From contig PKTZ01000106.1 of NCBI GenBank assembly GCA_002868925.1, positions 1 to 39,539 on the forward strand: DNA of 39,539 nt, read 5' to 3'. A program made the position numbers and the translations under genes. Positions within the stretch are counted from its first letter, which is position 1. Each line of letters starts with the position of its first letter. Below the pieces are notes generated by a model. That model saw only the letters and a program-made list of their open reading frames with translations, was not told the DNA's origin and did not search any database. The stretch comes from Desulfuromonas sp. (GTDB lineage Bacteria; Desulfobacterota; Desulfuromonadia; Desulfuromonadales; UBA2294). Below are positions 15,934 through 39,539 of this stretch, piece after piece.

Positions 15934-17193
15934 ATGAACATGGAACTGATTTATCCGCGCTGGCCGAAGCTCGATCGCCAGACCGAGTTTCACCTGCCGC
16001 CGCACGGCCCGGTCGTTTTTGCCGCGGCGTTGCCCGAAGAGGTTAAAGTCAACTTTACCGACGAGAACCTGCAGGCGGTCAACTTCGATGCGAGCTGCGA
16101 CCTCGTCGCCATCTCGACGATGCTGACCTCGCAGCTGCCGCGCGCCTTCGAGATCGCCCGCGAGTTTCGCGCGCGCGGCAAGACGGTGATCTTCGGCGGC
16201 ATTTCGACCATGCTGCACGCCGAGGAGGTGCAGCAGCACGCCGATTCCGTCTTCCTCGGCGAGGTCGAGGGGCGCATCGGAGAAGTACTCGAGGATTTCA
16301 AGCGGGGCGAGCTCAAGCCGGTCTATAACTACATGCACAACCATCCCGACATCAACCTGGTCGGGACCGCCCGGCGCGACATCCTCAACCGCGAACTCTA
16401 CAACTATCGCGGCGTCCAGATGCTCGATCTCGTCCACGCCTCGCGCGGCTGCAAGTTCGACTGTTTCCCCTGCTGTACCGGTTTTCTCGGAGGCAAGGCG
16501 TTTCGCCCCCGGCCGATCGACAAGGTCATCGCCGAGATGGAGGCGATCCAGAACAACCGCATGTTCATCGTCGATAACTCGCTCGCCCAGGACAAACAGT
16601 GGTTGATCGACCTGTTCACGGCGATGGCGCCGCTGAAGAAGAAGTGGGTCTCGCATCCGATCCTCGATGATGACGAGGTTCTGAAGCTGGCGGCCGACGC
16701 CGGCGCCTGGTATGTCTACCAGGCGGTTTTCGATACCTCGGACACTATCCGCAACCGGATCAAGCGGCTCAAGGAGTACGGCATCGGCATCGAGGGGACG
16801 ATTATCCTCGGCACCGACGATCAGAGCGAGGACGACATCAAGCGCTTGGTCGACTTCCTGCTCGAGGTCGAGCTCGATGTTGCCGAGTTCACGATCATGA
16901 CGCCGTTCCCGCATTCACCGATCCGGAGCCAGCTCGAGAGGGAGGGCCGCATCCTCTCGAACGACTGGCTCAACTACACCGCCGACAAGGTTGTTTTTCA
17001 GCCGAAACAGATGACGCCGGATAAGCTGCAGGAAATGTACTACTACGCCTGGGATACCTTCAACGCCGACAGCGGCCACGCCCTGAAGATGGGCAAGTTG
17101 TTCGAGCAGGTTATCCGCCGTGAGATCGAGGACGGCACCTATCGCCGTTATGAGCCGCGAAAACGGCGTCAATTCAAAAAGGAGAGCGCATGA
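15934..17193 (+). CDS. B12-binding-type radical SAM protein
   Basis: A 419-aa enzyme. The N-terminal 150 residues resemble the cobalamin-binding domain of this class (LVAISTML, VIFGGIST, FLGEVEG). The radical SAM domain begins with HASRGCKFDCFPCC, the CX3CX2C iron-sulfur motif (Cys173, 177, 180). Such proteins cleave S-adenosylmethionine and often methylate or rearrange unreactive carbons. It has a good ribosome-binding site (AAAGGAG) and follows a 48-base gap, the largest in this part of the operon. It is the first of three consecutive genes of this class. Substrate unknown; a lipid-like chain on ACP is inferred from the surroundings. Confidence 0.87.
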   Translation: MNMELIYPRWPKLDRQTEFHLPPHGPVVFAAALPEEVKVNFTDENLQAVNFDASCDLVAISTMLTSQLPRAFEIAREFRARGKTVIFGGISTMLHAEEVQQHADSVFLGEVEGRIGEVLEDFKRGELKPVYNYMHNHPDINLVGTARRDILNRELYNYRGVQMLDLVHASRGCKFDCFPCCTGFLGGKAFRPRPIDKVIAEMEAIQNNRMFIVDNSLAQDKQWLIDLFTAMAPLKKKWVSHPILDDDEVLKLAADAGAWYVYQAVFDTSDTIRNRIKRLKEYGIGIEGTIILGTDDQSEDDIKRLVDFLLEVELDVAEFTIMTPFPHSPIRSQLEREGRILSNDWLNYTADKVVFQPKQMTPDKLQEMYYYAWDTFNADSGHALKMGKLFEQVIRREIEDGTYRRYEPRKRRQFKKESA

Positions 17194-18545
17194 GTCGCGT
17201 CTTTTTCATCTCCAGTAATACCACCATCGAACCCTACCCGGTCTACCCCCTGGGCATGGCGGTGGTCTCAGGCGCGGTCAAGGCGGCCGGACACATGGTC
17301 GAGCAGTACGACTGCCTGGTCAACGGAGATGACATCGACACGCTGCGGGCCCGGATTGCCGACTTTGCCCCCGACCTGATCTCGATTTCGCTGCGTAACA
17401 TCGACAACGTCGACTCCTTCTCCGGCGAGAACGCCTGGTACCTGGCGCGAGTCAAAACCCTGGTCGCCGATATCCGCAAGTTCTGTACCGCGCCGATCGT
17501 CGTCGGCGGCCCGGCGTTAACCATCATGCCTGAACAGATCGCCACCTACCTCGAGGTCGACCACGCCATCATCGGCGAAGGGGAGGTTGCCCTGCCGCAG
17601 CTGGTCACTAACCTCTCTTCCGGCAAACAGGTGCCGCAGGTGATCACCCGGAGCGCACCGCTGGCCGGCAACGATTTCAGTACGCCGTTGTTCGACCCCG
17701 AGCTGGCTCCGTTCTACCTCGAACAGAGCGGGATGCTCAACCTGCAGACCAAGCGGGGCTGCCCCTATCGCTGCACCTACTGTTCCTACCCGCATCTCGA
17801 GGGGAACCGCTTCCGGCGCCGCGACCCGGAACTGGTTGTCGGCGAACTGAAACGGTTGAAGGATAAGCACGGGGTAGAGCGGGTCTTTTTTACCGATTCG
17901 GTTTTCAACGATCCGCAGGGAACATACCTCAAGCTCTGCGAAGAGATGATCCGCCACGACGTCGGTATCGGCTGGTCGGCCTATTTCAGGCCGCAGGGCT
18001 TCGGGCGGGAAGAGCTGCAGCTGATGAAACGGGCCGGTCTTTACGCCCTCGAACTCGGCCCCGACGCCGGCTGCGACCGGACCCTGAACGGACTCGACAA
18101 GAAGCTGACTTTTGCCGAGGTTATTGCGGTTAACGAGGCCTGTCTCGCCGAACAGCTGGCGGCAGCCCATTTCGTCATTTTCGGTGGCCCGGAGGAAGAT
18201 GACGAAACTCTGGCCGAAGGCCTCGACAATATGGACAGGCTCGGCGCCTCCGTCGTCTTCGCCTTCTCCGGTATCCGCATCCATCCCGACTCGCCGCTGC
18301 ATCAGCGGGCCATCGACGATGGGATCATCACCGCCGAGACCTCTCTGCTCAAGCCGGTCTACTACTTCTCACCGCGGATCGACCGGGAGAAGATGGAAGC
18401 GACCATCGAGGCCCGCTTTCACGGCCGGAAAAACCGGATCTTTCCGCCGTCGGAAGGGACGAAGCGCCTCGAAATCATGAAGAATTTCGGCTACCGTGGA
18501 CTGATGTGGAATCGGCTGATCCGCTTCCCGAAAGAAGAGTTGTAA
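17190..18545 (+). CDS. B12-binding-type radical SAM protein
   Basis: A 451-aa enzyme with the same layout as its neighbour: an N-terminal cobalamin-binding-like domain (PIVVGGPALTIMPE, HAIIGEGE) and a radical SAM domain starting at TKRGCPYRCTYCSYP, with Cys191, 195 and 198 for the 4Fe-4S cluster. It overlaps the preceding radical SAM gene by 4 bases. Gene clusters proposed for ladderane lipids contain radical SAM proteins of this kind among ketosynthases and desaturase-like flavoproteins. Ring formation or methylation of the chain is possible; nothing in the sequence decides between them. Confidence 0.88.
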   Translation: MSRVFFISSNTTIEPYPVYPLGMAVVSGAVKAAGHMVEQYDCLVNGDDIDTLRARIADFAPDLISISLRNIDNVDSFSGENAWYLARVKTLVADIRKFCTAPIVVGGPALTIMPEQIATYLEVDHAIIGEGEVALPQLVTNLSSGKQVPQVITRSAPLAGNDFSTPLFDPELAPFYLEQSGMLNLQTKRGCPYRCTYCSYPHLEGNRFRRRDPELVVGELKRLKDKHGVERVFFTDSVFNDPQGTYLKLCEEMIRHDVGIGWSAYFRPQGFGREELQLMKRAGLYALELGPDAGCDRTLNGLDKKLTFAEVIAVNEACLAEQLAAAHFVIFGGPEEDDETLAEGLDNMDRLGASVVFAFSGIRIHPDSPLHQRAIDDGIITAETSLLKPVYYFSPRIDREKMEATIEARFHGRKNRIFPPSEGTKRLEIMKNFGYRGLMWNRLIRFPKEEL

Positions 18546-18560
18546 CGGACAGAACAAGGT

Positions 18561-20009
18561 ATGGCGAAACTGAACGACAAAAATATCCTGCTGGTCCATC
18601 CGCTCGGCTACCAGGTCGATGCTGCAGCCAATGATATCTCGCGCAAGGCGAATATCATGCCGCCGCTCGGACTGGCGAGCATCGCCGCCTGTCTCGACGC
18701 CGCGGGTTTCAGCAGCTTTATCCTCGATTGCTACGCCCACCCCGATGCCGACGGACGGCTGCTCGAACTACTGCGTGAACATCGACCCGGCTTGATCGGC
18801 TTCAGCTGCACGACCGCCAGTTTCCATGACAGCGTCCGCCTGGCCGGCCTGGCCAAGCAGGAGCTGCCGGAAATCAGGACCGCTTTCGGCGGTGCCCATG
18901 TCTCGGCGTTGCAGGAGAAGGTTCTCGATTTCTCGCCGCTGATCGACTACGCCGTTATCGGCGAGGGGGAGCAGACGATGATCGAGCTGGCGCAGCTCGC
19001 CGGTGAAACGCCGCGCGACATCGGCGGGGTCGTCTGGCACGATAGCGATGGGGCAATCGTCAACAACGGTTACCGCAGCGACGCCCTGATCCTCGACGAG
19101 CTGCCGTTCCCGGCCTACGAGAAACTGGCCGGATACCCCGACGCCTACAAACTACCGATCTTCAACTACCCGAAGGCCCCGAACACAAGCTGTATCTCCA
19201 GCCGCGGCTGTCCCTACAGCTGCAGCTATTGCGATCGCAGCGTCTTCCAGCGCAGCTTCCGCTTCAACTCGGCCGAGTACCTCTACGCCCACCTCGAGTA
19301 TCTAAAAAATCGTTTCGGTATCCGTCACATCAACTTTTACGATGATCAGTTCACCTTCCAGCGCAAGCGGGTCGAGCAGTTCTGTCGGATGATGATCGAT
19401 AAGCCGCTCGGCATGACCTTCAACTGCGCCGTGCGGGCCGAACATGTCGACCGTGAGCTGTTGCAGCTGATGAAGGCGGCCGGCTGCTGGATGGTCAGCC
19501 TCGGCATCGAGAGCGGCGACGAACAGCTGCTGGCCCAGCACCGGCAGAACGCCAACCTCGACCTGCTCGCCGATACCATCCGCACGATCAAGGCGTGTGG
19601 CATCCGGACCAAGGGGCTGCTGATGATGGGCCTGCCGGGTGAATCCGAACTGTCGATCCGGCGCAGCATGGATTATGTCTATTCGCTGCCGATCGACGAC
19701 TTCAACCTGGCCAAGTTCACGCCGTTCCCCGGATCGCCGATCTACGAGAACATCCACGAGCTCGGCAGCTTCGATGAAGACTGGCCGAAGATGGACTGCA
19801 TGCATTTCCAGTTCGTGCCGCATGGCATGGAACAGGAGCAGCTCGAGAAGCTGTTCATCGAATTCTACAAGAACCATTTCAAGCGGAACCGGGTGCTGCT
19901 CGGCTACGTCAGCATGCTCTGGAAGTCGCCCGACAGCTGGCGCCGTTTCATTGCCAGCGCCGGCCAGTTCCTCCGTTTTGCCGTCAGTAACAAGCGCTAT
20001 GGCAGTTGA
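18561..20009 (+). CDS. B12-binding-type radical SAM protein
   Basis: A 482-aa enzyme, third in the row. The cobalamin-binding-like half has AFGGAHVSALQE and YAVIGEGEQT; the radical SAM half starts with SSRGCPYSCSYCDRS (Cys217, 221, 224). A C-terminal extension of about 80 residues follows the barrel (FTPFPGSPIYENI onward), as in BchE-like enzymes. Its end overlaps the glycosyltransferase gene by 11 bases. Reaction unknown; the operon position suggests it modifies the same lipid as its two neighbours. Confidence 0.88.
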   Translation: MAKLNDKNILLVHPLGYQVDAAANDISRKANIMPPLGLASIAACLDAAGFSSFILDCYAHPDADGRLLELLREHRPGLIGFSCTTASFHDSVRLAGLAKQELPEIRTAFGGAHVSALQEKVLDFSPLIDYAVIGEGEQTMIELAQLAGETPRDIGGVVWHDSDGAIVNNGYRSDALILDELPFPAYEKLAGYPDAYKLPIFNYPKAPNTSCISSRGCPYSCSYCDRSVFQRSFRFNSAEYLYAHLEYLKNRFGIRHINFYDDQFTFQRKRVEQFCRMMIDKPLGMTFNCAVRAEHVDRELLQLMKAAGCWMVSLGIESGDEQLLAQHRQNANLDLLADTIRTIKACGIRTKGLLMMGLPGESELSIRRSMDYVYSLPIDDFNLAKFTPFPGSPIYENIHELGSFDEDWPKMDCMHFQFVPHGMEQEQLEKLFIEFYKNHFKRNRVLLGYVSMLWKSPDSWRRFIASAGQFLRFAVSNKRYGS

Positions 20010-31075: not shown

Positions 31076-32368
31076 TCAAACCTTTGCTGCTTTATGTCCC
31101 TCAACCAGAAGCGCGGCGTAGTGTTGATAAAAGGTCTTTTCATCAAGTCGGGTCGGTAGAACAGCGTTGGTGAGGGTATAGTAGTCAAGATCGTGGATTC
31201 TGATCCGGTCCTTCATCTCCTCGTAGAGCCGGGTTCCCGGCAAGGGTGTCAGGACCGTATACATCGGCAGTTCGATTCCGTGTTCCCGAACGAACGAACC
31301 GAGCTGATCGAACTGCGCCTCAGTATAGTCGGGCGAGATAATAAAGTCACCAACAATTGTGATGCCGATACGGTGCAGAATTTCGATCGCCTGGCGGTTG
31401 ATTTGGGCATTGTTCTCCTTGTTCATCGCACCGAGGGCCCGGTCGTCAATCTCCTCGAATCCGATAACGACGGCCCGCAGTCCGATCTGTTTCCAGCGTT
31501 CCATCATTTCGGGGTGCCGGACCACCGAGTCGGAACGGACATCGGCCAGAAACTGCTTGCGGATGCCGGCCGCCTCAATGGCATCGGCAAGCGCCAGCGC
31601 ATGCTTCGGGTTGCCAAAGGTATTGGCATCGACCAGGCGGACTACTGGCGTTTGCAGCATTTCGATGTCCCGGATGACCGTGTCGGTCGCAGCGGTCAGG
31701 TAGGTCCCGCCGGTCAAGGACGAGATGCAGCAAAACGAGCAATCGTAGGGGCAGCCGGCTGCCGAGTTGACAAATCCGAGCTCCAGTCCGAGGCTTTCCA
31801 GGGTGTACTCCGACCGGTATTTTTCCACCAGATCGTAGCGGGGCGCCATTGTCTCGGCCAGATCTTCGCAGCTGTAGGTACGTGGCCTGTACTGCAGGGC
31901 TGTGCCCGGTGTTGCCCGGGCAACACCCGCGATGTCAATGGTGGGATCGTCCTGTTCAAGTGCGTCAACCAGTTCCCGGAAGCTCTGCTTGCCGAGCCCG
32001 ACGACGATCCAGTCAATCTCTTCGCGGTTGAAAAAATCGGGGTCGGCCGAGGCATGAACGCCGCCAACGACAATGGTAGCCCGGCTCTGCCGCCGTATCG
32101 TCTCCGCAATTTTGAGCATCGACTGGGCTTCACAGGTCATACCGGTTACGCCGACCAGGTCGGGGGAAAACTGTTCCAGGGCCGGGGATAGTCCCTCCGG
32201 TTCAACTTTTAGATCAAGAATTTCGAGATCATGATCGGGGAGGTTGCCTGCCAGCACTTCGAGGGCGAGCGGTTCACCGCGGAAAATCTGTTTGACCGAG
32301 GTGATGCCGTAGTTTTCTTCGGGGATGGATCGGCCGCTGTTCGGCGGGTTTATGAGGAGTATTTTCAT
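31076..32368 (-). CDS. B12-binding-type radical SAM protein
   Basis: A 430-aa enzyme with an N-terminal cobalamin-binding-like domain (MKILLINPPN, LVGVTGMTCE, IVVGGVHASADP) and a radical SAM domain starting with SAAGCPYDCSFCC (Cys206, 210, 213). It is the fourth enzyme of this class in the window and is transcribed on the opposite strand from the other three. The KAS III-like gene follows with no gap, so the pair probably acts together on one acyl product. No Shine-Dalgarno sequence is evident. Confidence 0.88.
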   Translation of the reverse strand: MKILLINPPNSGRSIPEENYGITSVKQIFRGEPLALEVLAGNLPDHDLEILDLKVEPEGLSPALEQFSPDLVGVTGMTCEAQSMLKIAETIRRQSRATIVVGGVHASADPDFFNREEIDWIVVGLGKQSFRELVDALEQDDPTIDIAGVARATPGTALQYRPRTYSCEDLAETMAPRYDLVEKYRSEYTLESLGLELGFVNSAAGCPYDCSFCCISSLTGGTYLTAATDTVIRDIEMLQTPVVRLVDANTFGNPKHALALADAIEAAGIRKQFLADVRSDSVVRHPEMMERWKQIGLRAVVIGFEEIDDRALGAMNKENNAQINRQAIEILHRIGITIVGDFIISPDYTEAQFDQLGSFVREHGIELPMYTVLTPLPGTRLYEEMKDRIRIHDLDYYTLTNAVLPTRLDEKTFYQHYAALLVEGHKAAKV

Positions 32369-33285: not shown

Positions 33286-33718
33286 CTTGTATTTCTGGCA
33301 AATAACAGTATTTGCCGATCTTCCTTTTTCATTAAATATTTCATATAGTTATCTTTTAGTTGTGGTCTGTGGATGATGTAGTCTTGACGGCAGTTTGGTT
33401 GGAAATTTTTGTATTGTCTCTGCTATTGTGAATATCCATTCTGTATCTATTTGAAATATATGTGTATTTAGCAGGTCGCTGGCTAGCTGAAAAGAGAAGG
33501 CTGTATTGTTTATTAATTGCGGCAAAGGGGCTTTTTGGTTCTGTGTGTCAGGGGGGGGTGATTCTTTATTTGTTTGTTGGGAATCGCAGCTATTGTTGTT
33601 GCCGTGTGGCGGCATAAAATTTGCACATAAACACCCGGTTTAACGTTAATTGTCCGGTATTCGATTGTTGTTTAGATTGACTTTATAAATTGACCCATTT
33701 GTTGGGGGAGTGTGTTTA
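33286..33718. other. AT-richer gene-free stretch before the secretion locus
   Basis: About 430 bases with lower GC than either flank and strand asymmetry (G- and T-rich on +, including a run of eight G at about 33551-33558). The 88-aa minus-strand ORF at 33349-33615 is Pro-, Thr-, Gln- and Asn-rich with no recognisable domain and is probably not a gene. A perfect palindrome TTAACGTTAA lies at 33640-33649. TTGTCC (33650-33655) with TAGATT 17 bases later is a possible promoter for the TolC-like gene. The composition suggests a junction between segments of different origin. Confidence 0.45.
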
Positions 33719-35320
33719 GTGATTTTACGATTCAAGAATTTGTTTTGCCTTGCCCTGGTTGCAGTTGTCTGTGTGGTTTTGCTGGCAACGACTTCAGGCT
33801 ACGCGGCTGACATGTCAGGTGAGAGTGAGGTCGGTTCGGAGGATGGGGGTGCGGCTCTTTTTTCTGTTCCCCGTGACCAGAGTCTGGCCGGCCTGGCCGG
33901 TGTTTCGGAAATTCCTGTCGCCGCCGATGCCGAAGGGCTGTTTGTCGATAATGTTTCGGTTTCGCGTTACCTTGACAGCGAACCGGCCAGTCCTGTCGAC
34001 GCCGCCGATTTGACCGAGTCAATCAACATTGGTCGGGGCTTTAACCGGGAGAGCCTTGCCGCGGCAGCCCGCACCGAGCAGGCGGCGGCCCAGACCGGTC
34101 AGGCGGTTGGCGATCTTCTGCCGTCGGTTTCGGTCAGGGCGAACCGGGGTTACGAGATTTCCGAACCTTCGGTCGTGGTTGACGACGTAACCGGTGAGCT
34201 CAAGGATCACAGCCGCCATATCCGGACCGATGTGACCCTGACCGTGTCGCAACCTCTGTTTGATCTGCCGACCTTTCTCGAGTGGCGCCGCCGCAAGCAG
34301 AAGGAGAAGGCACGCGGCGAGGGTTATCGGGTCAGTGACGGCGATGCCTACCTCGCCACGGTCAAATCCTATCTCTCCTTGGTGTCGACCCGTCTCCAGT
34401 CTGAGCTGATGCGTGATTTCGAGGCGCAACTTGCCGAGTTGTTGAGCTACATTGAAAAGCGGGCCGGTGCCGGGGCCGCGAGTGTGGCCGATATGTCCCG
34501 TGTTCGGGCTCGTAGCCAGGAGACAGTATCGACCCGGCTCGAGCAGGAATCGGCCCATCTGGCGGCCGGGACCGAGTTCGTTCGTCTGACCAACCTGGTC
34601 CCCCAAAAGCTTCAACTGCCCGCCCTCGAGGATGTCGGCCTTCCCCTTTTGCCGGAAACGTATGAACAGGCGGTCGAAATCGCGATGGAGTCGAACCCGG
34701 AGATTACGACACTGATGGCAGAACTGCAGTCGGAAAAGATCAACAAGTGGGCGGCCCGGGGTCGCTTCCTGCCGCAGTTCGACGCCGAGTATACCGATAC
34801 TTATTCCGAGCGCGCCGGAGGTAGTGACCAGGACCAACGCGATAAGCGGACAATGTTGGTGCTCAACTGGAACCTGTTCCGCGGAGGGAAGGATATCAAG
34901 ATCGTCAGGGAGCGTGTGGCACGGTACGAGGAGACCCAGTATCGTCTTGATGATCAGCGGCGGCGCGTGGTGCAGGCGCTGGCGTCGAATTATTCGGCGT
35001 TGAAGACAACCGGTCAGCGTCTGGAAACCGGGTACCAGGAGCTGGAGTCGATCGCGACCGCGGCCGAGGCGATGTCGAAGCGGATGCTCTCCGGCAACCA
35101 ATCGCTACTCGACCTTTTGACCGTCTACGACCGTTACTACAAGATCCGGGGCCGCCTGATCGATCTGCACGTGTTCGAGATGAACACGGTCGCACAACTG
35201 GTCAGGTTGACCGTCGGTACTCCGTGGCCGGCCGAAAAGCCGGTTTCGGAAGGCGAGAGCAATCAGGGTGAGCAGGTTATGCCGCTGTCGAATGAATGGG
35301 ATTCGCTTTATGGGGGCTGA
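33719..35320 (+). CDS. TolC-like outer membrane efflux protein of a type I secretion system
   Basis: A 533-aa protein. The signal peptide ends around SGYA-AD; an N-terminal region of about 80 residues precedes the TolC-like body. The long helices, the repeated 'A.A...P.....A.RGY' start of each half (LAAAARTEQAAAQTGQAVGDLLPSVSVRANRGYE) and the LNWNLFRGGKD block are typical. GTG 33719 is chosen since GGGGGAG is 8 bases upstream; the track start 33710 overlaps that site. It opens the secretion locus and would form the outer-membrane channel. Confidence 0.87.
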   Translation: MILRFKNLFCLALVAVVCVVLLATTSGYAADMSGESEVGSEDGGAALFSVPRDQSLAGLAGVSEIPVAADAEGLFVDNVSVSRYLDSEPASPVDAADLTESINIGRGFNRESLAAAARTEQAAAQTGQAVGDLLPSVSVRANRGYEISEPSVVVDDVTGELKDHSRHIRTDVTLTVSQPLFDLPTFLEWRRRKQKEKARGEGYRVSDGDAYLATVKSYLSLVSTRLQSELMRDFEAQLAELLSYIEKRAGAGAASVADMSRVRARSQETVSTRLEQESAHLAAGTEFVRLTNLVPQKLQLPALEDVGLPLLPETYEQAVEIAMESNPEITTLMAELQSEKINKWAARGRFLPQFDAEYTDTYSERAGGSDQDQRDKRTMLVLNWNLFRGGKDIKIVRERVARYEETQYRLDDQRRRVVQALASNYSALKTTGQRLETGYQELESIATAAEAMSKRMLSGNQSLLDLLTVYDRYYKIRGRLIDLHVFEMNTVAQLVRLTVGTPWPAEKPVSEGESNQGEQVMPLSNEWDSLYGG

Positions 35321-35342
35321 GGTCGGGCCTTAACGAATATTG

Positions 35343-35358
35343 GAATCGATAACGATTC
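35343..35358. repeat. Perfect inverted repeat between TolC-like and MotB-like genes
   Basis: GAATCG and CGATTC are separated by ATAA. It lies 30 bases upstream of the next start codon. The stem is short and the following T-rich stretch is weak, so an operator or a mild mRNA hairpin is as likely as a terminator. Confidence 0.35.
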
Positions 35359-35387
35359 GAGAGATTTTTAACAAAAGGTGAAATGAT

Positions 35388-36059
35388 ATGGCAGGCGCTT
35401 CTTCTGACAATGATGACGGATCTGAAATTTTTTGGCCCGGTTACGTTGACGCAACGACGAACCTGATTCTGAACCTCCTTTTTCTGCTGACGATCCTGAT
35501 CGTAGCGGTCTTCATGTTTGCTCTCGAGCTCGGACGGGCGGTCGGTCCACAGGATGCCAACGCTGAGTTCGAGGCACGAGCAGAAATTGAGGCGACCGAA
35601 ATCGATCCGGCAGCCGAGAACATCGCGCTCAAAAACGAGATCAAGCGCTTGCAGGCGCTGCTGGAAAAAAAGCAGGTCAGCCAGATCAACAAGACCGGTG
35701 AAGCGAAAACGGTCAGTGGAACACAGGTTGTCCCCAAGGCGGAGAAGGGCCTGTCTCAGGCGCTCCCCGGTGATTTCGAGTTGCTGGTTCGTTTCAACAA
35801 GGATTCGGTCTCGTTCACACCGGAAGAGCGCGAACAGTTACTACAGGATCTGAAGCCGGTTATAGCGGACGATAAGGCGCTGATTTATGTCGGGGTGCCG
35901 GCCGGATTTTCCGAGGCGAAGCGGATGGGTTTCTATCGTGCCCTGGCGGTGCGCAACCTGCTGATCCAGATGGGGGTTCCGACCAAGGATATCGATGTCT
36001 CTGTCGTTGAGGGAGCGGCCGACGCCGATGCGGCGGTTGTCAAGGTCCGATCACGCTGA
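35388..36059 (+). CDS. MotB/OmpA-like inner-membrane protein (SiiA-like)
   Basis: A 223-aa protein with a short cytoplasmic N-terminus, one helix (about 23-47), a coiled linker, and a C-terminal OmpA-like peptidoglycan-binding-type domain (about 128-223: FNKDSVSFTPEEREQLLQDL, ALAVRNLLIQMGV). WPGYVDATTNLILNLLFLL resembles the MotB helix start, and Asp21 sits where MotB carries its proton-binding Asp. In Salmonella SPI-4 the similar SiiA works with SiiB next to a type I secretion system. Here a MotA-like gene lies 1.4 kb downstream, so the two should form a proton channel. Confidence 0.8.
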   Translation: MAGASSDNDDGSEIFWPGYVDATTNLILNLLFLLTILIVAVFMFALELGRAVGPQDANAEFEARAEIEATEIDPAAENIALKNEIKRLQALLEKKQVSQINKTGEAKTVSGTQVVPKAEKGLSQALPGDFELLVRFNKDSVSFTPEEREQLLQDLKPVIADDKALIYVGVPAGFSEAKRMGFYRALAVRNLLIQMGVPTKDIDVSVVEGAADADAAVVKVRSR

Positions 36060-37366
36060 TGAGTACGGAACAGTCGACAGGAAAAAGCAGCATCAAGGAG
36101 AGGGTTGCGGACATGCCTCCGCGTCGTCTCTTTATCCTGCTGTTGCTTATCAGCAGTCTCAGCATACTGTTGTGGGCAGGACTGTCGGAAGTCGATGTTA
36201 TCGTCCGGGCCGAAGGGCAGATCATCCCGGCCGGGAAATCACAGATCGTTCAGCACCTTGAGGGCGGAATCGTTCAGAATATCCTGGTCGAAGAGGGGCA
36301 GCTCGTGTCCGCCGGCCAGCCGTTGATGGAGCTCTCTGATGTCCAGACCCGTTCCAACCTGGAGCAGGAACAATCGAAATTCGACGCCTTGCGCGGTCGG
36401 GAAGCGCGCCTGCTGGCCGAACTGCAGGGTGAAAATGAAATCACCTTTCCGGAAGACCTCACGGACCAGAACGTGATCCGGGTTGAGGCGGGAGCCTGGA
36501 AGGCGCGGCGGACCCAGTTGGCCGAGGAGGTCCAGGTTCTACAGGCCCAGAGCCAGCAGAAGAAAAACGAACTGGCCGAGATCAAGTCGCGGCAGAAGAA
36601 CCTGCTCGATGAGCTGGTGCTGGCACAGAAGAAAAACCGGGTAATCGAAGACCTTCGTAAGAACAACGCGGCTTCCGAGCTCGAGGTTCTTGACAGCCAG
36701 ATGCGGATTCAGCAACTCAAGTCGGAGATCGCCGAGGCGACCAGCCGCGCACCGCGCCTGCAGTCGGCCCTGGAAGAGGCCGAGTCGCGTGAGAAGGAAG
36801 CGGTCGCCCGTTTCCGGGCGGAAGCTTCCGCTGCCTTGACCCAGGTACGGGAAGAGTTGGAGAGTATCCGTTACGGTCTCGACAGCAGTGTCGATAGGCT
36901 CAAGCGGAATGTTGTGCGCAGCCCGGTGGCGGGCTTGATCAACAAGCTCAACGTGACGACGATCGGCGCGGTCGTGCGGCCGAGCGAGATACTGCTCGAG
37001 ATTACGCCGAGCGATCAACGCATCGTGATCGAGGCCCGGGCCAATCCGGATGATCGCGCCCACCTGCGGCGCGGCCTGTCGGCCCGGGTCCGGGTTGGCG
37101 CTTACGATTATTCGACCTACGGTACTTTTGAGGGAAGAGTAACGGAAGTCAGCGCCGATACCCTGCAGGATGAACGGGGCATTCGTTATTACCGGGTGAA
37201 TATCGAGGTCGATGTTTCGAACATTACAGATCGTAAGAACCAGCCGGGAGTGCTGATGCCCGGAATGGGAGCGAGCGCCGATGTGACCGTCGGAAAGCGA
37301 ACCATCCTCTCCTATATTTTGTCGCCCCTGCTGGAGTTCCGGGATGGTGCCTTTCGGGCGAGCTAG
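36059..37366 (+). CDS. HlyD-family membrane fusion protein
   Basis: A 435-aa type I secretion adaptor. One helix (about 24-42) is followed by the lipoyl half-motif VQHLEGGIVQNILVEEGQLVSAGQPLMEL, a long coiled coil (about 90-290), the second half VVRSPVAGLINKLNVTTIGAVVRPSEILLEI, and a beta-barrel end with GMGASADVTVGKRTILSYILSPLL, as in HlyD, LapC and SiiD. It bridges the inner-membrane ATPase and the TolC channel. It starts at the stop of the MotB-like gene (1-base overlap). The ABC ATPase expected for such a system is not in the window. Confidence 0.92.
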   Translation: MSTEQSTGKSSIKERVADMPPRRLFILLLLISSLSILLWAGLSEVDVIVRAEGQIIPAGKSQIVQHLEGGIVQNILVEEGQLVSAGQPLMELSDVQTRSNLEQEQSKFDALRGREARLLAELQGENEITFPEDLTDQNVIRVEAGAWKARRTQLAEEVQVLQAQSQQKKNELAEIKSRQKNLLDELVLAQKKNRVIEDLRKNNAASELEVLDSQMRIQQLKSEIAEATSRAPRLQSALEEAESREKEAVARFRAEASAALTQVREELESIRYGLDSSVDRLKRNVVRSPVAGLINKLNVTTIGAVVRPSEILLEITPSDQRIVIEARANPDDRAHLRRGLSARVRVGAYDYSTYGTFEGRVTEVSADTLQDERGIRYYRVNIEVDVSNITDRKNQPGVLMPGMGASADVTVGKRTILSYILSPLLEFRDGAFRAS

Positions 37367-37443
37367 CAAGAAGTAAGTAAACTAACAGATCAGTTGTTGA
37401 TGAACATAAACGATTAGATGACCTAAAGAGGGACGAAAAAGCC

Positions 37444-39348
37444 ATGCTCAAGAATCTTAAGATCTATTATCTGTTCGTATCGCTTCCGTACATCATGCTG
37501 ATGATCGGGGCGACTATTTTCTGGGGCCCGATTGAAGGGACCCTTGACCGCAACCCCCATCCCCAGATCAACTACACCATCTTCGTTATCATCATCGGTG
37601 GCGGGCTAATTGTCCTCCTCAACGCTCGCCGTCTGATGCGTGAAGCGAAGGTTCTGGTTGAGTTTTCCAAAGCGGTGCACGCCAAGACCGATATCGAAAG
37701 TCTGAAGGAGTTGGCCAACAGCTACACCTGCGATATCGCCTGCCTGCTGCAGATGATAGCCTCCTCCTCAGATCGCTCTATCTCCCACCAGGAGCAGGCG
37801 GCCCTCGAGCATGAAACCGAAAACGTCCACAGTCGCCTCAATCGACGCAATGCTCTGCCGTCGTATCTCACCGGCCTGCTGGTCGGCATGGGCCTGCTCG
37901 GTACCTTCATCGGCCTGCTCGCTACCCTGGGCGACATCGGCGCCCTGATCGGTAGCTTCTCAGATCTCGACATGAGCGCGGCCGATCCGATCGTGGTCTT
38001 CAGTAACATGATCGAGAAGATGAAGGCGCCGATGGCGTCGATGGCAATCGCCTTCTCGGCGTCGATGTTCGGTCTGCTCGGGTCGATTATCCTCGGCCTG
38101 ATGATGGTCGGGATCAAGCGTTTCCAGGGCGATATCTTCTCCGTGCTCAGTTCCGAAGTGGCACGCCACATCGAGGTTGCCCTGTCATTCGAGAGCATCT
38201 CTTTCCGTGGCGAGGGCGATGCCGTCGGTTGTTACGAACAGGGGTCTGAGCTGACCTCCAAGGTGCTGCTGAGGATCGAGGAGCGCCTTACCGAGGCGGC
38301 CCGCATCCGGCAGCGTGCCCTCTCTACCGAGATCGATGATTTCAAGAAGCAGCGCTCCGATATGCTCACCGCCCTGAAAGAACAAACCGATGCAAACAAT
38401 GCATTCCGTGGTGAAATGCAGCAGTTGGTGACACAACTCGGCAACGTGTTTAAGGTCATGGAAAAGGGTTCGGGCGAACTGACCTCGCAGCTTTCCGAGC
38501 TGACCGTGCAGATGGCCGGCAACGCCAAGGAGTCACACAAGCTGCTCGCCACCCAGGCCGAAGAACAGAAGAAACTGCGCGACACCATCGATTCGTACAA
38601 CATCGAAGAGCGGCTCGCCGAATCGGCCCGCAGTCAGCAGCGGATGCTCACCTCGATGCTGGAAGACTTCGAAAACCAACGAAATGAGATGCTTAGCGCC
38701 CTTAACGACCAGACCGAGACCGGCAACAACCTGCACAACCAGTTGCAGCAGGTCGGCGGTCAGCTCGGTGAGCTTTCCGAACTGCTGGCGAAGGGGAACA
38801 GCGAAGTTTCGTCCCAGCTTTCCGAGTTAACCGTGCAGATGGCGACCGACGCCAAGCAGGCGCAGTCTCTAATCAGCACTGCCAGCGGCAACGTCCGCGG
38901 CGAACTGCAGCAGCTCGGCACGAAGTTTGCTGAAAATATCACTACCCTCACCACGACCGTGGAGAAGGGAGATGGTGAAATCTGTGACCAGGTTGCCGAA
39001 CTGGCAAAGGATTCGGCGGAAACGTCCCGTCAGGCCCAGGTCCAGCAGGCCGATTTCATGGGGCGGCTGGTCGAGCAGATTGAAAAAGGCGACGGTGAAC
39101 TCGCAAGTCGGATTGCCGGTCTGCAGAAGGATGTCACTGACGAATCGAACCAGTCGGGGACACAGCGTGCCGAGATGCTGAAGAACCTCGCCGAGCAGGT
39201 CGAGGCGAACAGCAAGGCGCGCGCCGAACTGCAGAAAATAAGCGTTCAGCTCGGAACCATCGCCGGTCTCATCGAAAAAGGGAATGGCACTCTGGTTAGC
39301 AAGGTTTCCGAGCTGGCGGCTAGTATGAGCGAAGAAAATCAGGAATAG
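37444..39348 (+). CDS. MotA/TolQ/ExbB-like protein with long repeated coiled-coil tail (SiiB-like)
   Basis: A 634-aa protein. Helices at about 12-28 and 43-60 are followed by the ExbB/MotA-type pair SYLTGLLVGMGLLGTFIGLLATLGDIGAL (140-168) and MASMAIAFSASMFGLLGSIILGLMM (198-221). From about 275 to the end it is hydrophilic coiled coil, including a 109-residue tandem repeat (EERLxExAR at 279 and 388; SQLSELTVQMA at 348 and 457) and weaker later copies of EKGxGEL. The channel part should pair with the MotB-like protein at 35388. The long cytoplasmic tail is unusual for ExbB but resembles SiiB-like and ZorA-like proteins. Confidence 0.86.
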   Translation: MLKNLKIYYLFVSLPYIMLMIGATIFWGPIEGTLDRNPHPQINYTIFVIIIGGGLIVLLNARRLMREAKVLVEFSKAVHAKTDIESLKELANSYTCDIACLLQMIASSSDRSISHQEQAALEHETENVHSRLNRRNALPSYLTGLLVGMGLLGTFIGLLATLGDIGALIGSFSDLDMSAADPIVVFSNMIEKMKAPMASMAIAFSASMFGLLGSIILGLMMVGIKRFQGDIFSVLSSEVARHIEVALSFESISFRGEGDAVGCYEQGSELTSKVLLRIEERLTEAARIRQRALSTEIDDFKKQRSDMLTALKEQTDANNAFRGEMQQLVTQLGNVFKVMEKGSGELTSQLSELTVQMAGNAKESHKLLATQAEEQKKLRDTIDSYNIEERLAESARSQQRMLTSMLEDFENQRNEMLSALNDQTETGNNLHNQLQQVGGQLGELSELLAKGNSEVSSQLSELTVQMATDAKQAQSLISTASGNVRGELQQLGTKFAENITTLTTTVEKGDGEICDQVAELAKDSAETSRQAQVQQADFMGRLVEQIEKGDGELASRIAGLQKDVTDESNQSGTQRAEMLKNLAEQVEANSKARAELQKISVQLGTIAGLIEKGNGTLVSKVSELAASMSEENQE

Positions 39349-39473
39349 CAGTAGCTTCCCGCCATAACGACGGGTCAAGAAGGATCGGTGTTTTTTCCAA
39401 CGCCGCTCGGTTGAAGATGGTTTGTGTTTTCGTCTTCTAGCGAGGGCAGAGGGAAGCAAAAGCGGAGGTTGAT

Positions 39474-39539
39474 ATGGCTGACAAGACCGAAATTACCAAA
39501 AACGGGCCCGAGCAGGGGCAACAGGTTGAGCGTGCAATA
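39474..39539 (+). CDS. Start of an unidentified gene after the secretion locus (partial)
   Basis: ATG 39474 has GGAGG 6 bases upstream and opens a frame that runs to the window end: MADKTEITKN, Gln- and Glu-rich, no signal peptide. The good ribosome-binding site and the open frame support a real gene. Its position directly after the channel gene suggests the secreted substrate, such as a giant adhesin without a cleaved N-terminal signal, or another secretion component. The 22 visible residues cannot decide. Confidence 0.65.
   Translation, partial: MADKTEITKNGPEQGQQVERAI

What the first reader, a model, noticed from the sequence alone, without database searches (positions are those of the whole stretch)
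33719..39539. Type I secretion locus with its own MotAB-like channel, like Salmonella SPI-4
TolC-like, MotB/OmpA-like (Asp21 at the helix start), HlyD-like and MotA/ExbB-like genes lie in one direction, followed by the start of a new frame. SPI-4 uses SiiA/SiiB in this way to control surface retention or release of the giant adhesin SiiE. A comparable locus in this type of organism would extend that principle, possibly to mineral or surface attachment.
Basis: partly seen in the sequence, partly recalled or inferred. Interest (0 to 1): 0.75.

Follow-up and report, generated by a model that had tools for sequence, protein, structure and literature searches.

The report
Adhesin export locus with proton-channel genes
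A metal-reducer-type bacterium carries an operon that exports a giant surface adhesin and has its own proton-driven motor proteins built in; this arrangement, known until now mainly from Salmonella, turns out to be a widely conserved machine in environmental bacteria.

Summary
TolC, MotB-like, HlyD and MotA-like genes lie in one direction (33710-39348). The frame that starts at 39474 matches the start of a giant RTX adhesin. The contig ends 66 bp into the adhesin gene, but contig C167 of the same genome starts inside an RTX adhesin and runs into the genome's only type-I-secretion-type ABC transporter. One relative has the whole locus intact, with a 4943-aa adhesin. In 64 loci found through the MotA-like protein alone, 63 carry secretion or adhesin genes beside it, nearly all in the order TolC-MotB-HlyD-MotA-adhesin-ABC (some cut by contig ends), across Desulfuromonadia, Beta- and Alphaproteobacteria. 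The best PDB match of the MotB-like profile is SiiA of Salmonella SPI-4, and two invariant arginines align with an arginine pair that I infer to be SiiA's peptidoglycan-binding one. The channel Asp21 is invariant. So it works like SPI-4, but gene order, RTX substrate and a MotA tail built of 109-residue repeats differ. SiiB could not be compared. Mineral attachment is untested. This is a new, widespread variant of a known kind.

The parts
33710..35320 (+). TolC-family outer membrane channel (536 aa; other starts such as GTG 33719 are possible)
   Evidence: PF02321 OEP 5.9e-35; TIGR01844 type_I_sec_TolC 157 bits, below its cut-off of 225; first gene of the locus in 53 of 64 related loci, by my count from the list
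35388..36059 (+). MotB/SiiA-like B subunit (223 aa): channel Asp21, TM helix 17-51, flexible linker, OmpA-type peptidoglycan-binding domain about 128-223 with invariant R179, R184, R189
   Evidence: 39-sequence alignment; profile against PDB, best hit SiiA 6qvp_A, E 0.054; AF2 model and Foldseek, SiiA TMt 0.75-0.76
36059..37366 (+). HlyD-family periplasmic adaptor (435 aa); its ATG overlaps the MotB-like stop codon
   Evidence: TIGR01843 363.8 bits, over the cut-off; overlap
37444..39348 (+). MotA/ExbB/ZorA-like A subunit (634 aa): ExbB/TolQ-like core about 1-250, long alpha-helical cytoplasmic tail about 270-634 with 109-residue repeats
   Evidence: PF01618; ZorA families are the nearest curated models; AF2 model against PDB: ExbB/TolQ, then ZorA; repeat period
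39474..39539 (+). First 22 codons of the giant adhesin gene; the contig ends here
   Evidence: similarity to adhesin N-termini of relatives; the gene's 3' end is probably on contig C167 of the same genome (L037)

Best explanation
The locus is one operon for a type I secretion system whose substrate is a giant, Ca2+-binding RTX adhesin, with a built-in proton-driven stator-like channel. Order in the operon: TolC - MotB-like - HlyD - MotA-like - adhesin - ABC ATPase. Likely mechanism, as in SPI-4: the ABC transporter, HlyD and TolC export the adhesin C-terminus first. Its conserved N-terminal domain comes last and stays in or near the secretion duct. A MotA pentamer with a MotB dimer, anchored to peptidoglycan through the OmpA-type domain, uses proton flow (Asp21) to hold or release the stalled adhesin according to membrane energisation. 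The repeat-built MotA tail reaches into the cytoplasm and probably contacts the ABC transporter or sets a length or timing signal. Shown: gene content and order, conservation, channel Asp, peptidoglycan-binding-type fold, conserved adhesin N-terminal domain found only with the MotA gene in the relatives sampled. Inferred: 5:2 stoichiometry, proton flow, retention control, role of the tail.
For: 63 of 64 loci found by MotA alone carry T1SS and/or adhesin genes, nearly all in the same order. The whole locus is intact in L026+L027. In the own genome, contig C167 begins inside an RTX adhesin and goes on with an LssB-type ABC transporter, the only T1SS-type one found, 71% identical to that of the relative. 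Asp21 and R179/R184 are invariant in 39 homologues. SiiA is the best PDB match by profile and among the best by fold. The MotA core is ExbB/TolQ/ZorA-like. T1SS-linked MotA proteins fall on one side of a branch against stand-alone relatives, support 94. The adhesin N-terminal domain occurs in 7 of 58 order relatives, all 7 with the MotA gene, none of 49 without. Two nearly complete genomes with the locus have no LapG protease. SiiAB is reported to form a proton channel that controls SiiE retention, and SiiF binds SiiB (PMC6272769, PMC12607715).
Against: No experiment on any of these proteins. The sequence match to SiiA is marginal (E 0.054). SiiB was not compared. In the own genome the two halves lie on different contigs, and the N-terminal and middle parts of the adhesin were not found elsewhere in it. 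Five relatives with the locus also carry LapG elsewhere, so LapG-type release is not excluded there.
Confidence: 0.8

Rival explanations
1. The MotA/MotB-like pair drives or assists export itself (as ExbBD does for TonB or TolQR for Tol-Pal) rather than controlling retention of a finished adhesin.
For: The MotA core is closest to ExbB/TolQ in the fold search. The stator genes are interleaved with HlyD, which hints at a physical complex with the export duct.
Against: In SPI-4, deletion of siiA/siiB leaves SiiE secretion into the medium unaffected but lowers invasion (PMC12607715).
Confidence: 0.25
2. The MotA-like protein is part of a Zorya anti-phage system that merely lies next to a secretion operon.
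For: PADLOC ZorA3 2.7e-10 for the core and ZorA1 1.5e-7 for the tail; NCBIfam ZorA models are the nearest.
Against: 63 of 64 relatives lie in T1SS/adhesin operons. The MotB-like protein matches no PADLOC family, and its best solved relative is SiiA. The neighbouring genes in the window are all T1SS genes or its partner.
Confidence: 0.02
3. A generic stator pair (the stand-alone PRK09039-type pair of Alphaproteobacteria) was inserted by chance into a Lap-type adhesin operon; retention is by LapD/LapG.
For: The N-terminus of the MotB-like protein matches PRK09039 models (9e-8). LapG occurs in 5 of 10 genomes checked.
Against: Order conserved across three proteobacterial groups. T1SS-linked MotA proteins separate from stand-alone ones. 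No LapG found in the own genome or in the nearly complete G004 and G024.
Confidence: 0.08

Closest known systems
Salmonella SPI-4 (siiABCDEF)
   Same: The same six kinds of gene: MotB-like, MotA-like, TolC, HlyD, giant adhesin, LssB/HlyB-type ABC transporter. B subunit with a TM helix, a flexible linker and an OmpA-type peptidoglycan-binding domain whose two arginines align.
   Different: Gene order is TolC-MotB-HlyD-MotA-adhesin-ABC instead of MotB-MotA-TolC-HlyD-adhesin-ABC. The substrate carries RTX repeats, whereas SiiE is described as non-RTX with 53 BIg domains. The MotA tail is built of 109-residue repeats. SiiB could not be compared.
LapA/LapDG-type adhesin systems (Pseudomonas LapA, Desulfovibrio DvhG)
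   Same: Giant T1SS adhesin with RTX repeats and an LssB-type ABC transporter.
   Different: Stator-like pair in the operon; no LapG/LapD gene recognised in the locus, and LapG absent from some genomes that have it.
Zorya ZorAB
   Same: MotA-type core with a long cytoplasmic tail; the nearest curated families.
   Different: No Zorya effector; embedded in a secretion operon; B subunit is SiiA-like.
Stand-alone PRK09039-type MotA-MotB pair
   Same: WPGxVDA motif in the B subunit, related A subunit.
   Different: Not next to T1SS genes; separate branch in the tree.

Membership tests
Type I secretion system for a large RTX adhesin | TolC, HlyD and ABC transporter encoded together | tested here: met
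   In the window: TolC and HlyD. ABC transporter on contig C167 behind the adhesin end. All on one stretch in relatives, e.g. L026+L027, L041, L042.
Type I secretion system for a large RTX adhesin | Giant repetitive substrate with C-terminal RTX repeats | tested here: met
   4943 aa in L026+L027, 20 RTX stretches at the C-terminal end, PF00353 2.9e-99. In the own genome a 1753-aa C-terminal part on C167.
SPI-4-like system with SiiAB | SiiA-type B subunit: TM helix with channel Asp, linker, peptidoglycan-binding domain with two essential Arg | tested here: met
   Asp21, R179, R184 invariant; SiiA best PDB hit, E 0.054; fold TMt 0.75-0.76. That the aligned arginines are R162/R167 is inferred from their spacing of 5. 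SiiA's own TM region was not available for comparison.
SPI-4-like system with SiiAB | A subunit homologous to SiiB | not testable with these tools
   No SiiB sequence was reachable; the A subunit is ExbB/TolQ/ZorA-like.
SPI-4-like system with SiiAB | Gene order siiA-B-C-D-E-F | tested here: not met
   TolC-MotB-HlyD-MotA-adhesin-ABC in the window group; MotA-TolC-MotB-HlyD-adhesins-ABC in three Enterobacterales genomes.
SPI-4-like system with SiiAB | Proton conduction and control of adhesin retention | not testable with these tools
   Needs experiments.
Lap-type system | LapG protease and LapD in or near the operon | tested here: not met
   PF06035 absent from the own genome (88% complete), G001, G004, G024; present on other contigs in five relatives. 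LapD was not searched for.
Zorya | zorC/zorD/zorE or similar next to zorAB | tested here: not met
   Neighbours are T1SS and adhesin genes.

The most novel reading that the evidence does not exclude
Stator-coupled type I secretion is a separate, old and widespread class of adhesin secretion machine, of which SPI-4 is one branch. In it a MotAB-type motor with a length-variable, ZorA-like cytoplasmic tail couples the proton-motive force to retention or release of a giant RTX adhesin, in place of c-di-GMP and LapDG.
Probability: 0.5. Interest if true: 0.75.

Novelty: new variant of a known kind. Interest (0 to 1): 0.62.

Why it matters
SiiA/SiiB have been treated as accessory proteins of one Salmonella island. 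Here the same combination is a conserved operon in free-living sediment, groundwater and freshwater bacteria, so it can be studied in harmless cultivable strains. It gives a testable question: does the proton-motive force decide whether a cell keeps or drops a giant adhesin? It also links three stator families (ExbB/TolQ, ZorA, SiiAB), and it warns that annotation pipelines may call these MotA proteins ZorA.

Tried and rejected
Zorya defence: rejected on neighbourhood. Chance neighbourhood: rejected by 63 of 64 loci. Stand-alone MotA-MotB pairs in Alpha- and Gammaproteobacteria were checked and are not next to T1SS genes. Plasmid copies: none with the window protein. Other parts of the adhesin in the own genome: none found. 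The search for SiiB via an E. coli handle failed, as that record is not held; the Enterobacterales sample gave three related loci with another gene order but no SPI-4 order. The MotB-like profile of six sequences against PDB gave nothing useful; only the 39-sequence profile found SiiA. The adhesin N-terminal domain has no significant Pfam, NCBIfam or PDB match. A role of MotA tail length as a ruler for adhesin length was considered; lengths on hand show no plain relation, but this was not tested formally.

Full report
What is in the sequence. Four genes run in one direction at the end of the window: TolC (33710-35320), a MotB-like protein (35388-36059), HlyD (36059-37366) and a MotA-like protein with a long tail (37444-39348), then a new frame at 39474 that runs off the contig after 22 codons. 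Gaps are 67, -1, 77 and 125 bp, so one operon is likely. HlyD passes the cut-off of the type I HlyD family. The window is contig C17 of a 2.57-Mb, 88% complete genome. From its relatives it belongs to the Desulfuromonadales group (inference).

The missing half. In relative G031 the locus is unbroken: TolC-MotB-HlyD-MotA, then one frame of 4943 codons with a conserved N-terminal domain, many Ig/cadherin-type repeats and about 20 RTX stretches, then a GT4 glycosyltransferase and an LssB-type ABC transporter. In the own genome, contig C167 starts inside an adhesin (1753 codons, RTX end) and goes on with a 692-aa ABC transporter, 71% identical to that of G031; the adhesin ends are also alike. It is the only T1SS-type ABC transporter in that genome's list by score and length. 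The break inside a repetitive gene is what short-read assembly would give. The join of C17 and C167 is therefore likely but inferred. The N-terminal and middle parts of the adhesin were not found in the own genome.

More than chance. A scan of 85,462 species genomes with the MotA core alone gave 64 loci. The scan knew nothing of the neighbours. 63 of the 64 have T1SS and/or adhesin genes next to the MotA gene, and nearly all follow TolC-MotB-HlyD-MotA-adhesin-ABC, complete or cut by contig ends; the odd one out, L103, is a very weak match. They come from Geobacter, Desulfuromonas, Geopsychrobacter, Desulfocapsa/Desulfobulbaceae, Methylovorus, Methylotenera, Rhodoferax, Limnohabitans and Magnetospirillum, among others. 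Three Enterobacterales genomes have MotA-TolC-MotB-HlyD-two adhesins-ABC, a second order. Within the own order only 9 of 58 genomes have the MotA gene, so the trait is patchy.

The B subunit. Thirty-nine homologues share WPGxVD with the channel Asp21, and R179, R184 and R189 in the C-terminal domain. Against 177,635 PDB sequences the best match of their profile is 6qvp_A, the periplasmic domain of SiiA, over the whole domain (E 0.054; marginal by itself). R179 and R184 align with chain residues R60 and R65, the only arginine pair five apart in the aligned part; SiiA is reported to need R162 and R167 for peptidoglycan binding (PMC12607715), so I infer that these are the same pair. The AF2 model has a TM helix, a disordered linker and an OmpA-type domain. 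In Foldseek many OmpA-like domains match; SiiA chains have the highest target-normalised TM-scores in the list, 0.75-0.76. In the three Enterobacterales proteins R184 seems kept but R179 not (read by eye).

The A subunit. The first 330 residues match the MotA/TolQ/ExbB family. Among curated families ZorA models are nearest. The AF2 model matches ExbB and TolQ best, then ZorA, with modest scores (E 1.5e-3 and up). The cytoplasmic tail is rich in E, L, Q, A and S. In the Desulfuromonadia group it is built of units with a period of 109 residues (often with 54-residue halves), and total length varies from 404 to 742 aa over all relatives with a complete gene. In a tree, 52 T1SS-linked MotA proteins lie on one side of a branch against 38 stand-alone ones, support 94, after leaving out ten long-branch or weak rows. 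This fits one origin of the association but does not show it.

The adhesin N-terminus. About 100 residues with DGTI...VDVADVDLLLxFxDGxxVIIPNGALDA are conserved while the adhesin bodies vary. In the same 58 relatives this domain occurs in 7 genomes, all 7 with the MotA gene, always directly behind it; the other two MotA genomes (own and G056) have contigs that break there; none of the 49 genomes without MotA has it. No library names it. As the last part to be exported it is the natural candidate for what the channel holds or lets go (inference).

How it most likely works. As in SPI-4, where SiiAB is described as a proton channel that controls SiiE retention, where uncoupling lowers retention, and where SiiF contacts SiiB (PMC6272769, PMC12607715). 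ABC/HlyD/TolC export the adhesin C-terminus first; the N-terminal domain stays behind; the peptidoglycan-anchored stator holds or frees it depending on proton-motive force; the tail may contact the ABC transporter. The gene content, residues and conservation are shown; the rest is inferred. LapG-type release is not needed in at least the two nearly complete genomes G004 and G024, which have the locus and no LapG.

Comparison with the known. By content it matches SPI-4 gene for gene; by order, substrate type (RTX; SiiE is called non-RTX) and MotA tail it differs. Membership in the SPI-4 family proper cannot be claimed: gene order is not met and SiiB was not testable. In the open-access papers searched, SiiAB is mentioned in this role only for Salmonella, and a broad survey of stators does not list this group. 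Subscription papers were not searched, so prior description is possible.

Verdict. Observation confirmed; interpretation right in kind, with mineral attachment unsupported. It is a new and widespread variant of a known kind, of real interest to people who study adhesin secretion and ion-driven stators.

Noticed in passing
window 514-25204: Large cluster upstream with several ketosynthases, an aromatic amino acid lyase (PF00221, 8.6e-164), an MMPL transporter, an FAD oxidoreductase, acyltransferases and B12/radical-SAM-type proteins: looks like an aryl-polyene type pigment cluster (reading from memory of such clusters; only single domains tested).
   Followed up: partly
window 15934-20009 and 31076-32368: Four long frames that read like cobalamin-binding radical-SAM enzymes near the polyene-like cluster; only a weak B12-binding match for the first was tested.
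   Followed up: partly
L027 6712-8007: A GT4 glycosyltransferase (PF12000 1.6e-66) lies between adhesin and ABC transporter in G031 but not in the own genome; it might glycosylate the adhesin.
   Followed up: no
L190 1672-6295: A MotA-like gene followed by two different MotB-like genes and a TolC-like gene in a gammaproteobacterial genome, with no HlyD, adhesin or ABC transporter in the stretch: another possible stator-TolC combination.
   Followed up: partly
L209 7694-10395; L210 9526-12192: Another MotA-type protein of 666-675 aa with a small MotB-like partner in unrelated surroundings.
   Followed up: no
window 37444-39348: PADLOC and NCBIfam ZorA models hit this protein or its relatives; automatic defence annotation could mislabel the whole group as Zorya.
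   Followed up: yes
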